A stretch of 27,190 bases of DNA from Paenibacillus sp. JCM 18996. Its GTDB lineage: Bacteria > Bacillota > Bacilli > Paenibacillales > NBRC-103111. Position numbers and translations under genes: made by a program. This document shows, piece by piece, positions 3,021-16,815 of the stretch. Position 1 is the stretch's first letter. Each line of letters opens with the position of its first letter. The DNA lies in the NCBI GenBank assembly GCA_001313085.1, contig BBFE01000049.1, positions 1-27,190 of the forward strand, in the 5' to 3' direction. A model generated the notes under the pieces. The model was not told the DNA's origin, ran no database searches, and was given only the letters and a program-made list of their open reading frames with translations.

Positions 3021-4554
3021 GTGGGAGCGATTAGTGTGGGTAAACAAAACAGCAGGGGCTCTCTCACCGTTCCGGTGGAGAAAAAACGGCGAATACGAAG
3101 CGGACATTATCGGTATAGGCCACGAGGGAGAAGGGGTGGGCCGTGTAGACGGCTTTACCTTTTTTTGTACCTGGCGCTCTCCCCGGCGAACGGGCGCTGG
3201 TCAAAGTGCTTAAGGTAAAAAAAACAGTTCGCTACGCCAAATTACTGAAAGTGCTCGAGCCAAGCGCCGACCGTTCGCAGCCTCCTTGCCCGATTTACAA
3301 GCAGTGCGGCGGCTGCCAGCTTCAGCACCTGAACTATGAAGCGCAGTTGAAGGTGAAACGGCAGACGGTAGTGGATAACCTGGAACGGATCGGGAAATTG
3401 AAGGTACGGAAGGGTTTAAATGAGACCTCCTGGGAGTCTGACGAGAACGGGGTCCAGCCCCACAGCGAATTTACCGATGGTCAATTAAATGATGATCCAG
3501 GGATACTGGTGCATCCTACTGTAGGAATGAACGACCCTTGGCGCTACCGTAACAAAGCACAGGTTCCGTTTGGAGAAGAAGAGGGCGGATTAATCGGAGG
3601 TTTCTACTCCCAGGGCAGCCACCGCATAATAGATATGAACGAGTGCCTTATCCAGCATGAAGCTAACGACACTGTTGTTAATGCCGTTAAGCAGATAGCC
3701 CGTGATCTGGGGATCAAGCCATACTCGGAGGAATCGCATACAGGCTTGCTTCGCCATGTGGTCGTAAAAGTGGGCTTCCGTACCGATGAAATCATGGTTG
3801 TTCTGGTCACCAACGGCGACCGAATTCCACGTGTGAACGAATGGATTGCCCGAATTCGGGAAGCGATCCCGCAGGTCAAGAGTATCTGCCAAAACGTAAA
3901 TACAAAGCGCAGCAACGTTATTTTTTTTGGCGATGTAACCAAAGTTTTGTGGGGCAGCGAGGTCATTTATGACTACATTGGCGCAGTCAAGTTCGCCATC
4001 TCGGCACGCTCCTTCTACCAGGTCAACCCGGTGCAAACCGAAGTGCTGTATAATAAAGCGCTGGAATACGCCGCGCTTAGCGGCGAAGAGACCGTCATCG
4101 ATGCCTACTGCGGCATTGGAACCATCTCTTTGTTCCTGGCGCAGCGAGCCAAGCGAGTGTACGGCGTCGAGATCGTCGCGGAAGCGATCGCCGATGCACG
4201 AAAGAATGCCGAGTTAAACGGCATCACCAACGTGCATTTCGAAGCAGCCCCGGCAGAGGCGGTCCTCCCCGAATGGAAACGTCAGGCATAACGCCTGACG
4301 TGATCGTGGTGGACCCGCCGCGCAAGGGCTGCGATGCGTCGCTGATCGCGACGATCCTCGAGATGCGCCCGGAGCGGGTCGTCTACGTGTCGTGCAACGC
4401 ATCGACACTTGCCCGCGACCTCGCGCTGCTCGAGCAGGGTGGCTACCGCACGGTCGAAGTGCAGCCGGTGGATATGTTCCCGCATACGGTGCATGTTGAA
4501 TGTGTAGTGTCAACATATAGAAAAGATCTTCTTGTAGGTGAAGGCGATGAGTAA
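3021..4554 (+). CDS. rlmCD: 23S rRNA (uracil-5-)-methyltransferase RlmCD
   Basis: This SAM-dependent RumA/TrmA-family enzyme makes 5-methyluridine at two 23S rRNA sites in Bacillota. A TRAM domain comes first (GHEGEGVGRVDGFT...PGALPGERALVKV). The Fe-S motif CPIYKQCGGC follows. The Rossmann methyltransferase core shows QVNPVQTEVLY, DAYCGIGTISLF, VVDPPRKGCD and the catalytic Cys in YVSCNASTLARDL. The GTG at 3021 has an AAGGTG ribosome site. Frame breaks lie at the 6-A run 3081-3086, the 7-T run 3160-3166, and near 4286, where one G appears to be missing inside a 9-bp hairpin. The repaired length is about 510 residues. Its last codons form the left copy of the island attachment repeat, and its stop codon overlaps the terminator. 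Confidence 0.93.
4481..4517 (+). repeat. left attachment-site copy at the 3' end of rlmCD
   Basis: These 37 bases of rlmCD recur at 16763-16799 with 32 matches, including identical blocks of 8, 11 and 10 bases. Most differences are in third codon positions, so both copies descend from coding sequence. The copies bound island A. Confidence 0.75.
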
Positions 4555-4572
4555 GTCTCATCGCCTTCTTTT
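4541..4572 (+). terminator. rho-independent terminator of rlmCD
   Basis: A perfect 11-bp stem (AAGGCGATGAG / CTCATCGCCTT) closes a 5-base loop TAAGT and is followed by CTTTTCT. The rlmCD stop codon lies inside the hairpin. The convergent minus-strand gene ends 14 bases further on. Confidence 0.85.
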
Positions 4573-4585
4573 CTATACTTTAAAG

Positions 4586-5879
4586 TTATAGGTTATCCTC
4601 ACATTGCCAGATTCTTTGACCTCGATTCGCTTGATAAGATATGTAGCGAACTTTAAAACCTGTCACTTTTTTTATACCCCACTAAAGGGGAATCGGTAAG
4701 TTGAATTCACTAGAAGCAATATTTTTGATTTCTACACCAGAGATGTCAACTAGGGTTTCCTGTAAATTCTTTTTTATCTATGTAATGCCTCTTTAGGAAT
4801 TGAGAACAAGCTCTAATTTTTTTGATAGTTCTCAGAAACATAATCATTAAAGATATTGTCAAAGCCATCAATTTTCATGTCTAAAAAAAATTCTTCATAC
4901 CAGCCCATACAAATTCCTAGTTTATAGACGCTGCAGTTGTCAAGGAATAGCACAGCCAATAACTCCAAATCTAATAAATCCAAAGTTCCTGTTACATCAT
5001 CAACCCTTTTTTCTTATTTCATCTTGTCCTCGTTTTTTTCTAAAAAAGGATTCTTTTATTCGAGGGCCTATTTTCTTCATATGCATTGATACCGTTGCTA
5101 CCGAACTGTAAAATTGTTGGGAATCATTTATCCATTTTTTTCAATTCTATTTCTTATTCGATCATTAACAGTCTCCAGACATCGTTCGTCAAGATCTTCA
5201 TTTATTCTTGCTTGGATATGTTTATTAAAGGCATCAAGTAATGACCTGGATGCGTTCGATTCGTTGAAATCCTTTAGACCATGGAATTCCTCAAATTCTT
5301 GCACCTCATTGTCATATAATTCATCGTATAAAGCACTTTCGATTTCGTTAATGTCTAACGCATGAATCTCTTCCTCGATAATCCGCTCTAAATTATAATT
5401 TTCTTCAGAAAAAATCGCTGCAAAACTTGTACAACTCCTTCCAATCCAAATCTTCAAGCCAGGAGTCAGGGTATGTGTTTCTCAAATTAGTCATCTTTTC
5501 ATATATTGCTAAGAATAGGGGGCTAGATTCTGACTCTATATGATTAAGAAGTTTTTTTCTCATCCTCACCTATTTTATCATTTTTTTTGATTTTTTTTCA
5601 TGAGTAAGGTCAAGATAGTCAATCATTGTTTTTTATTTTTTGCTATAACTTCAGCAGCATTTTTTTTCATAATTTCTATAATACCGCTCCTTTTTTTTCA
5701 TAATTGCTATAATACTGCTCCCTTTTTTTCTTTGTAATGAACATTTTCTCGTAGGTATTTATGCTTCACACGGTATTCCTTGTCTACGGATCTATCTTTG
5801 ATTTTTTATATTATATTGTTCAAGATATTTAATTAGTTTTCCCATATTTTTTTGGCCATTCTGAAGTCGGGTTACTCAT
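4586..5879 (-). CDS. unrecognised charged protein, heavily frameshifted
   Basis: I do not recognise this family. On the minus strand an excellent ribosome site (AGGAGA, complement of 5886-5891) precedes the ATG at 5879. Shortening most A runs of 6-8 by one base chains the fragments into one reading of about 430 residues that ends at the TAA at 4586. The N-terminal third is charged and Tyr-rich, with a repeated pattern (REQYYSNYEKK then ERYYRNYEKN). The clearest intact block is 5128-5457 (acidic, LERIIEEEIHALDINEIESALYDEL). A downstream block contains LDLLDLELLAVLFLDN. One junction near 5133-5139 is not resolved by the simple rule, so two adjacent genes are possible. It converges on rlmCD and diverges from the gene at 6060. 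Confidence 0.5.
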
Positions 5880-6059
5880 GATATTTCTCCTAAAGTTGGT
5901 ATCTGGAACTTATATTCATTTTACATTTATATATTTTAATTCTCAACAAGAATCAAATAAAGTCTTGCTTAGAGGGAACCTCCAAGATTTACAATACAGT
6001 ACGAGAAGAAATTCCAGTGATTCAAAGAAGATCTATAAGAAATGTGAAGGAGCGATTGT

Positions 6060-15886: not shown

Positions 15887-16613
15887 GTGAGAACGTTCGT
15901 AGTTTCAGATATTCATGGGTATTATCGTACCTTTGTAACACTTCTATCTCGCCTGAGTTATAATCCGAGCAGTGATCGGCTTATTTTGCTTGGTGATTAC
16001 GTTGATGGAGGGCCTGCATCCCTTGAAGTAGTCCGTTTGGTTCAACAGTTGGTAAAAAATGCGAATGTTCATGCAATTGGCGGCAACCATGACGATATGT
16101 TCCTCAATTGGCTAGATGACCAAGATTATCTCCCATCTCCTTATACCCTCCCTAAGAACGGTGGACTACAGACGATTCATTCATTTTGCCCCTGGTACAA
16201 TTCAGAGATGGACGATACAAAGGCACGAGAATATATCAACAAGCAGTACTTCACTGAAATTAGTTTTTTTGCGTAACTTACCCAACTTTGTTGAAGATGA
16301 TTTTCATATCTACGTGCACGCCGGAATAGATCCTCAACAGAATGACTGGAAACAAACATCGCATAAGGATTTTCGGTGGATACGTAAACGGTTTTATGAA
16401 TATTCTAGTTCACTGCCTACAAGTAAAGTGATTATATTCGGGCACGAGGTTTGTGCACGTTTACATAAAGATGAAACAAACTTTACTCCATGGTTTGGCG
16501 GTCAATTAATCGGTATTGACGGAGGTATTAAGTTCGGGAAATATCTAAATGCGCTTATTATCGAAGATACTGGAGAATATCATTCAGTGAGTACGGTAAG
16601 TTTAGATAATTAG
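15887..16613 (+). CDS. PrpE/ApaH-like Ser/Thr-type metallophosphatase (phosphoesterase 3)
   Basis: This belongs to the PPP-like branch, which includes bacterial protein phosphatases and diadenosine tetraphosphatases. Metal ligands read SDIHGYYRT, LLGDYVDGGP (the GDYVDRG position, with Gly replacing Arg), GGNHDDMFLNW, VHAGIDP and FGHEV. The GTG at 15887 has a GGGAAG site. The only frame break is the 7-T run 16264-16270; six T give EISFLRNLPNFVEDDF. The repaired length is about 242 residues, normal for the family. Its substrate is either phosphoprotein or dinucleotide. The missing Arg in the GDYVDRG loop is a departure from classical PPP enzymes. A Ser/Thr kinase lies 0.8 kb downstream, but in island B. 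Confidence 0.85.
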
Positions 16614-16614
16614 A

Positions 16615-16647
16615 TTGGTGATAACTTGGTGTTAAATTGGTGATAAA
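16615..16647 (+). repeat. three exact-period 11-bp tandem repeats (iteron-like)
   Basis: Consecutive units TTGGTGATAAC, TTGGTGTTAAA and TTGGTGATAAA run head to tail. An inverted match ACCAA lies just downstream near 16660. They begin two bases after the phosphatase stop and about 115 bases before the right attachment copy, a typical place for integrase arm-binding sites. Confidence 0.7.
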
Positions 16648-16761
16648 ATCCAACATTAACCAACCTAAAACCCCAAATAGAACAGAATAAGAACTTTAAA
16701 ATCCCAGTAAAATCAAGACTTCAGCGGACTATAACAGATTCTATCAGACCCAGTGACGAAT

Positions 16762-16815
16762 CCGCATACGACACATGTTGAATGCGTAATGTCAACATAC
16801 CGTGTTGACAAATAA
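16762..16815 (+). pseudogene. displaced 3' end of an rlmCD gene, right attachment-site copy
   Basis: The last 17 codons of an RlmCD-type protein are preserved (PHTTHVECVMSTYRVDK, then TAA) with no gene body upstream. Bases 16763-16799 match 4481-4517 at 32 of 37 positions. Most differences are synonymous, so this is a divergent allele of the same gene end. A terminator follows, as it does behind the real rlmCD. This is the expected result when an element integrates at the 3' end of a gene and pushes the original or a foreign gene end to its far side. Confidence 0.75.

What the first reader, a model, noticed from the sequence alone, without database searches (positions are those of the whole stretch)
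4481..16815. Duplicated rlmCD 3' end brackets a 12-kb island with no integrase, next to a second island that has one
The last codons of rlmCD (4481-4517) reappear at 16763-16799 with 32 of 37 identities, still in frame and ending in a stop plus terminator. The differences are mostly synonymous, so the second copy came from another rlmCD allele rather than a recent copy. Integration at 3' ends of rRNA/tRNA methyltransferase genes (including rumA-type genes) by tyrosine integrases is established in streptococci. Here island A lacks a recombinase while the neighbouring island B has one, which suggests tandem accretion with A mobilisable in trans.
Basis: partly seen in the sequence, partly recalled or inferred. 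Interest (0 to 1): 0.75.

Follow-up and report, generated by a model that had tools for sequence, protein, structure and literature searches.

The report
Stacked mobile islands at rlmCD's end
In this Paenibacillus-like chromosome the tail of a ribosomal RNA methyltransferase gene is a docking site where mobile DNA islands have piled up one after another, each leaving a copy of the gene's end behind, and the two islands nearest the gene seem to have no integrase of their own.

Summary
The repeat is real: rlmCD's end (4480-4517) recurs at 16762-16799 (33/38), far above chance. That integrase therefore belongs to a third element (C); neither island A (4518-16761) nor island B (16816-24903) has a recombinase that our profiles find. 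Relatives show why: the rlmCD 3' end is an integration hotspot. Of 29 genomes of the nearest genus scanned, 12 carry 17 further same-strand rlmCD ends downstream. Tyrosine integrases and large serine recombinases both occur convergent to rlmCD, and arrivals swap the gene's C-terminal tail. A looks like a hybrid remnant: its left end keeps a stub resembling a serine-recombinase C-terminus, its right end is a tyrosine-type att arm of another class (TTGGTG) than element C's (TTGATG). Mobilisation of A by the neighbouring integrase is therefore not favoured, though untested. B's restriction cargo recurs beside an rlmCD end in another genome. Closest known: cis-mobilizable elements, Dehalococcoides ssrA islands, rumA-specific serine integrases of streptococci. 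New member of a known kind.

The parts
3091..4554 (+). rlmCD (23S rRNA uracil methyltransferase), read in more than one frame; two frameshifts, probably sequence errors
   Evidence: ORFs; 72% aa best segment, Paenibacillus ferrarius; frames 1,2,1 against an intact relative
4480..4554 (+). rlmCD end copy 1 (left junction of island A) with tail ECVVSTYRKDLLVGEGDE
4540..4568 (+). terminator-like stem after rlmCD
4518..16761 (.). island A, no complete tyrosine integrase or large serine recombinase in any of six frames
   Evidence: six frames, two recombinase profiles; Pfam in part of the frames
4576..4641 (-). stub resembling the last ~22-28 codons of a large serine recombinase, convergent to rlmCD
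   Evidence: 55% over 20 aa to the rlmCD-adjacent LSR of L033, E 0.029; best LSR hit of the window, i-E 0.0038; 15.2 bits, profile 473-494
9197..9466 (+). Island A cargo: MNT-type nucleotidyltransferase (weak Polbeta, below the Pfam cut-off)
10795..11106 (+). Island A cargo: Fic/DOC domain
12818..13411 (+). Island A cargo: Uma2 nuclease family
14821..15279 (+). Island A cargo: leucine-rich repeat protein
15887..16276 (+). Island A cargo: calcineurin-like phosphoesterase
16614..16761 (+). right-end module of island A: three TTGGTG arm-like repeats (16615-16648) and a conserved block ending at the core
   Evidence: (21 of 41 listed hits)
16762..16815 (+). rlmCD end copy 2 (junction A/B), ECVMSTYRVDK-stop
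16855..16879 (+). terminator-like stem
16816..24903 (.). island B, no tyrosine integrase or large serine recombinase found
   Evidence: six frames; Pfam on the three plus frames
17526..18026 (+). Island B cargo: Ser/Thr protein kinase fragment
18856..24040 (+). Island B cargo: type I restriction-modification HsdR, HsdM, HsdS (in several frames)
   Evidence: relative in G078
24037..24744 (+). Island B cargo: ImmA/IrrE (M78) family protein, best PADLOC match capP
25031..25053 (+). element C left arm-like repeats TTGATG x2, 136 bp from the core
25304..26523 (-). element C tyrosine integrase (Phage_int_SAM_3 + Phage_integrase), in three frames

Best explanation
The 3' end of rlmCD is a chromosomal attachment site. 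The target covers the codons of the PHTxHVE stretch; an incoming element carries its own version of these codons and its own tail, so rlmCD is kept while its C-terminus is exchanged and the previous end is pushed downstream. Here three elements lie in a row: A, B and C, separated by three rlmCD ends, the oldest (C, with a tyrosine integrase) furthest out. A and B have no recombinase that we find and are best read as decayed, cis-mobilizable-type passengers with defence-like cargo (B: type I restriction-modification). A is probably a hybrid left by a deletion: left end from a large-serine-recombinase element, right end from a tyrosine-integrase element of the TTGGTG arm class. Shown: three ends, recombinase contents, the hotspot and tail exchange in relatives. 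Inferred: order of arrival, origin of A by deletion, present immobility.
For: Three rlmCD ends in the window. In 29 genus genomes 12 carry 17 extra ends, all downstream on the rlmCD strand; threshold 9 against a maximum of 6.3 in three base shuffles (one strand each); one minus-strand hit, in G033. Reversed control pattern: 0 hits in 30 genomes. Tail exchange: in G031 the displaced end at +8.4 kb has the tail VALLVRNETDAEEPY and 302 bp at 82-85% to the in-gene ends of G010, G014, G022. rlmCD tails: mean pairwise identity 0.46 against 0.86-0.98 for 18 control 10-aa windows of the gene; correlation with gene body 0.15 (controls -0.02 to 0.95). Among 107 loci with a readable end (window apart) 14 have tyrosine-type and 14 LSR-type matches convergent within 2 kb, weak ones included; the tail starts EC in 11 of 14 LSR and 1 of 14 tyrosine loci (Fisher P 3.4e-4), in 39 of the 79 loci without; counting by hand only matches over 50 bits, 6 of 6 and 0 of 12. 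The window fits: copy 1 EC with LSR stub, copy 3 ES with tyrosine integrase. Tandem arm-like repeats occur in the window only at 16615 and 25031, 147 and 136 bp from a core. A's right-end module makes up 21 of the 41 hits listed for all of A; 11 of 18 fetched module sites run straight into the core at >=13/17, background 0-4 of 300 positions. B's restriction block is followed by an rlmCD end in G078.
Against: No genome is held for the window, so no empty site of the same strain, no reads and no right end of C. Copy 3 lacks the CCGCATACG part and shares only a short core with copy 2 (12/18); B's ends have no arm repeats. 7 of 18 module sites lack a clear core. The LSR stub is short and unseen by Pfam. 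Two arm-like clusters in relatives (G022 +61.7 kb, G029 +11.8 kb) lie beside no known end. The tail test ignores kinship, shares two records of one genome (G001/L001) and used profiles made from some of these loci. 17 of 29 genus genomes showed no further end over the threshold in the 1 to 38 kb fetched (G034 among them has a truncated one), and longer stretches were fetched mainly where extra ends were already known.
Confidence: 0.88

Rival explanations
1. One reading: A is an intact cis- or trans-mobilisable element excised today by the neighbouring tyrosine integrase, which recognises the ends at 4480 and 16762.
For: Both ends share a 38-bp core at 87% and A's right end keeps an arm module. 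Arm class does not follow integrase kinship strictly: L055, among the nearest to C's integrase, has TTGCCG repeats, and L042 has TTGGTG-like ones.
Against: Arm class differs (TTGGTG in A, TTGATG in C; G033 shows TTGATG at both ends); A has no left arm cluster; left end LSR-like; the integrase belongs to C, beyond island B.
Confidence: 0.15
2. A and B are one decayed element plus an internal partial rlmCD copy made by ordinary duplication or homologous recombination, not by site-specific recombination.
For: Longer partial rlmCD copies exist in relatives: about 241 bp at 81% 8.8 kb downstream in G008/P. piri, and pieces in G024 (same contig) and G011 (another contig).
Against: The short copies are cut at the core, differ in tail, and often follow a conserved right-end module.
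Confidence: 0.05
3. The recombinases of A and B are present but hidden by frameshifts of a poor assembly or belong to a family not searched.
For: Three upstream housekeeping genes each show two frameshifts. Only tyrosine-integrase and LSR profiles were run in all six frames; Pfam was run on the plus frames and part of the minus frames.
Against: The same six-frame search with stops read as X recovers C's integrase in pieces (profile 4-393) but nothing above noise in A or B except the LSR stub.
Confidence: 0.07

Closest known systems
Cis-mobilizable elements (CIMEs) and tandem accretion in streptococci (PMC7563491, passages seen)
   Same: Recombinase-less islands flanked by att ends, stacked at one target next to an integrase-bearing element.
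   Different: Target is rlmCD; conjugation genes or their remains were not identified here; two recombinase families occur at the site.
rumA-specific serine-integrase ICEs of streptococci (PMC4701971, passages seen)
   Same: Same family of target gene; integration exchanges the 3' part and alters the C-terminus of the methyltransferase.
   Different: There the repeats are 2-21 bp and lie inside the integrase gene, with a frame change; here LSR reading frames end 6-17 bp beyond the rlmCD stop in five loci (G009, G025, L016, L033, L078) and tyrosine integrases occur at the site too.
Dehalococcoides ssrA genomic islands (PMC3146451, passages seen)
   Same: Multiple tandem islands within 100 kb downstream of one gene, bounded by copies of its 3' end; 15 islands there lack integration modules.
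   Different: tmRNA gene and serine integrase DsiB; here a protein-coding gene.
Listeria prophages between rlmCD and fosX (PMC8386393, passages seen)
   Same: Same target gene.
   Different: Prophages; no stacked integrase-less islands in the passages seen.
SCC elements at rlmH in staphylococci (recalled; search listing only)
   Same: 3' end of an rRNA methyltransferase gene, composite arrays, ccr-less pseudo-SCC, restriction cargo (all recalled).
   Different: Different gene and ccr recombinases (recalled).

Membership tests
Site-specific integration at a gene 3' end | direct repeat of the gene end bounding the island, in frame | tested here: met
Site-specific integration at a gene 3' end | displaced native end in relatives | tested here: met
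   G031 against G010/G014/G022; not testable for the window's own strain
Site-specific integration at a gene 3' end | an empty site in a relative | tested here: inconclusive
   no clear native downstream neighbour could be fixed
Site-specific integration at a gene 3' end | excised circle or excision activity | not testable with these tools
   no reads, no bench
Cis-mobilizable element (island A) | retains attL and attR | tested here: inconclusive
   cores on both sides; right arm module present, left arm cluster absent
Cis-mobilizable element (island A) | no recombination genes | tested here: met
   for tyrosine integrase and LSR (stub only); other families only in part
Cis-mobilizable element (island A) | derived from an ICE or IME | tested here: inconclusive
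   the Pfam scans of A reported no conjugation or relaxase family, but no conjugation-specific search was run and not all minus frames were scanned
Cis-mobilizable element (island B) | retains attL and attR | tested here: inconclusive
   copy 2 and copy 3 share only a short core, 12/18; no arm clusters at B's ends
Tyrosine-integrase element at rlmCD (element C) | integrase convergent to an rlmCD end with arm repeats between | tested here: met
Large-serine-recombinase element (left end of A) | recombinase gene present | tested here: not met
   only a C-terminal stub; so A is not filed as such an element

The most novel reading that the evidence does not exclude
rlmCD in Paenibacillaceae is a shared docking site where two unrelated recombinase families compete. 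Deletions among the stacked elements create recombinase-less hybrid islands (serine-type left end, tyrosine-type right end; window A and perhaps G036), and repeated arrivals keep replacing the C-terminal tail of an rRNA methyltransferase, making that tail a record of, and possibly an adaptive product of, mobile elements.
Probability: 0.35. Interest if true: 0.55.

Novelty: new member of a known kind. Interest (0 to 1): 0.42.

Why it matters
It maps a mobile-element hotspot in a large environmental genus, shows how restriction and other defence-like cargo is stored in recombinase-less islands, and gives readable markers (end copies, arm class, tail type) to reconstruct the order of arrivals. 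The same codons appear to serve as target for two recombinase families, which makes a direct test of cross-recognition possible.

Tried and rejected
Megablast of 4500-16800 against plasmids and of 4500-27190 against phages: no match. Own genome: not held. A's cargo as a whole was not seen in 104 family genomes; the best cargo hit is the phosphoesterase in G015 at 67%. A block of up to ~5 kb shared downstream of rlmCD in several genus genomes was considered as the native neighbour (empty site), but it lies at 0.2 to 16 kb from rlmCD and in G030 inside an end-bounded stretch, so it was not used. Whole-genome Pfam searches (PF00589, PF07508) in 8 genomes (G008, G015, G020, G028, G030, G032, G034, G036) listed no match inside their islands; these 8 were chosen because the first profiles had found no complete recombinase there (G036 had a stub). 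Literature: two searches naming rlmCD and one naming rumA with Paenibacillus and integrase listed no paper on such islands in Paenibacillus; from those lists only PMC8386393 and PMC13330698 were opened (passages).
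Full report
Observation. The window begins in a moderately GC-rich chromosome of a Paenibacillus-like bacterium (closest rlmCD 72% in the best segment, P. ferrarius) and drops from 0.61 to 0.34 GC at the end of rlmCD. Nothing else in the window exceeds 21/37, and simulated windows reach 24/37 at most (200 trials). The second copy is in frame, ends in a stop, and has a terminator-like stem behind it. The claim that differences are mostly synonymous is wrong: in the 37-mer 4 of 5 differing bases lie in codons that change the residue.

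A third end. A blast of relatives' displaced ends against the window, and a matrix of 40 in-gene rlmCD ends (the window's copy 1 among them), found a third copy at 24904-24954, reading HVESVALLVRDGTER-stop. It is 81.6% identical over 87 bp to a displaced end of G028. It lies 350 bp to the left of the tyrosine integrase pieces (25304-26523, minus). So the window holds rlmCD-A-end2-B-end3-C, and the integrase belongs to C. A six-frame profile search with stops read as X recovers C's integrase along its whole length in three frames but finds no tyrosine integrase or large serine recombinase in A or B beyond the stub described below.

Frameshifts. rlmCD and the two genes before it (by my reading CbiX-like and diacylglycerol-kinase-like) each break into three frames, two shifts per gene, against intact relatives. 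This is best explained by sequence errors, so nothing is called a pseudogene here.

Relatives. All 30 genomes of the nearest genus have an rlmCD match. With the 41-bp matrix at a threshold of 9 (maximum 6.3 in three base shuffles of 1.13 Mb, one strand each) 29 genomes were scanned downstream (G012 was left out, its rlmCD lies at a contig edge): 12 carry 17 further ends, all on the rlmCD strand, at 2 to 84 kb; one hit, in G033, lay on the other strand. The stretch examined differs between genomes (about 1 to 92 kb) and was longer where extra ends were already known, so 12 of 29 is a lower bound and no rate. G034 has a further, truncated end at 18.67 kb. A degenerate pattern with one mismatch matched in 27 of 30 genomes, mostly at rlmCD's own end, some on other contigs; its reversed control matched in none. 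Of the 12 first islands, 3 hold a complete tyrosine integrase (G022, G024, G033), 4 only fragments (G025, G031, G036, G037) and 5 none by these profiles. For eight genomes (G015, G020, G028, G030, G032, G034, G036, G008) whole-genome searches with Pfam PF00589 and PF07508 also listed nothing inside the islands. Islands without a complete integrase are therefore common at this site (9 of 12 first islands).

Tail exchange. The residues from the E of HVE onward differ widely: mean pairwise identity 0.46 over ten positions, against 0.86-0.98 for 18 windows inside the gene, with a correlation to the gene body of 0.15 (controls -0.02 to 0.95). In G031 the displaced end carries the tail found in the rlmCD genes of G010, G014 and G022, and 302 bp including it are colinear at 82-85%. 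Among 107 loci with a readable end (window apart), 14 have tyrosine-integrase matches and 14 LSR matches within 2 kb on the opposite strand, weak ones included; the tail starts EC in 11 of 14 LSR loci, 1 of 14 tyrosine loci and 39 of 79 loci with neither (P 3.4e-4 for the first two, kinship not corrected, one genome present twice; with only matches over 50 bits, counted by hand, 6 of 6 and 0 of 12). The window's copy 1 is EC with an LSR-like stub; copy 3 is ES with a tyrosine integrase.

Ends of A. On the left, about 20 bases behind the rlmCD stop, the minus strand reads like the C-terminus of a large serine recombinase (55% over 20 residues to that of L033, E 0.029; best LSR hit of the window, i-E 0.0038; 15.2 bits, profile 473-494). 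Pfam reports nothing in these frames. Similar stubs, without further LSR matches within 2 kb, stand behind rlmCD in G036, L047 and L050. On the right, 148 bp before end 2, three TTGGTG repeats start a module. In a search of 104 family genomes with all of A, in which the best two candidate places per genome were scored, this module accounts for 21 of the 41 hits listed, in 16 genomes; cargo hits are shorter or weaker but for one phosphoesterase match. I fetched 18 of the 21 module sites; 11 run straight into the rlmCD core at 13 of 17 or better, 7 do not; the other 3 had been seen before as ends of G020, G022 and G034. Arm-like repeats lie 135-146 bp right of the core on the integrase side (G014, G022, G031, G033, L018, L022 and window C), and left of the core at right ends by 136 (G022), 137 (G033), 136 and 172 (G034), 208 (G020) and 147 (window A); two clusters, in G022 and G029, lie beside no known end. 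TTGATG repeats go with the integrases of G033 and L018 and the remnant of G031, TTGGTG with G014, G022 and L022; but L042 has TTGGTG-like and L055 TTGCCG repeats. Integrase C is nearest to L018, G033 and L055 and has TTGATG. Hence A's right end probably belonged to another class. That A arose by a deletion between a serine-type and a tyrosine-type element is an inference.

Island B. Cargo: kinase fragment, type I restriction-modification, ImmA/IrrE protein. In G078 two blocks are 88% (window 18580-22446) and 86% (23760-24853) identical and a third 78% (23104-23316), and an rlmCD end (46.4 bits) follows 176 bp later; the rlmCD gene of G078 lies on another contig, so linkage there is not shown. 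B's right end lacks arm clusters and shares a short motif (TGTTCTCACT..TACTC) with an end in G015.

Comparison. Passages of PMC4701971 state that single serine integrases target rumA in streptococci and exchange the 3' parts. Passages of PMC8386393 report prophages between rlmCD and fosX in Listeria. Passages of PMC3146451 describe tandem ssrA islands, 15 of them without integration module. Passages of PMC7563491 define CIMEs and accretion. The present case works like these and is filed as a member of the general kind (tandem islands at a gene 3' end). For A, the CIME label remains open: left arm missing, ICE origin not shown. What is particular is the use of one protein-coding target by two recombinase families and the resulting tail exchange. 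That HVE holds the catalytic base of this enzyme family is recalled, not tested.

Noticed in passing
window 1079-4554: Three housekeeping genes (by my reading CbiX-like, diacylglycerol-kinase-like, rlmCD) each show two frameshifts against an intact relative: the assembly is probably rich in indel errors.
   Followed up: yes
window 26981-27190: The last ~210 bases match places in many of 104 family genomes (list cut); repeated AAAATAAAGT.TTAGAC units lie nearby; looks like the end of a multi-copy insertion sequence.
   Followed up: no
G034 end at +18.67 kb and G014:C1:889470 (L171): Both right-end modules run into CGCATACGGTGCATGT and then similar other sequence (ATGTGCTTATT...), as if the core were joined to another partner.
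   Followed up: no
L007 (P. piri) 20173-20238: A longer rlmCD 3' fragment (about 241 bp, 81%) lies 8.8 kb downstream of rlmCD.
   Followed up: partly
G018, G023, G026, G027, G030, G034, G035, G037 downstream of rlmCD: A block of up to ~5 kb is shared at about 70-93% but at very different distances (0.2 to 16 kb) from rlmCD.
   Followed up: partly
window 24880-24907; G015 +18.1 kb; G032 +7.5 kb: A third class of right end (TACTC..ACATGT) occurs at three islands in which no tyrosine integrase or large serine recombinase was found.
   Followed up: partly
G036 rlmCD +13.1 kb (L116 14162): Displaced end like the window's copy 2 (80% over 70 bp), in an island that also starts with an LSR stub and ends with TTGTTGACGA-type repeats: a possible second hybrid.
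   Followed up: partly
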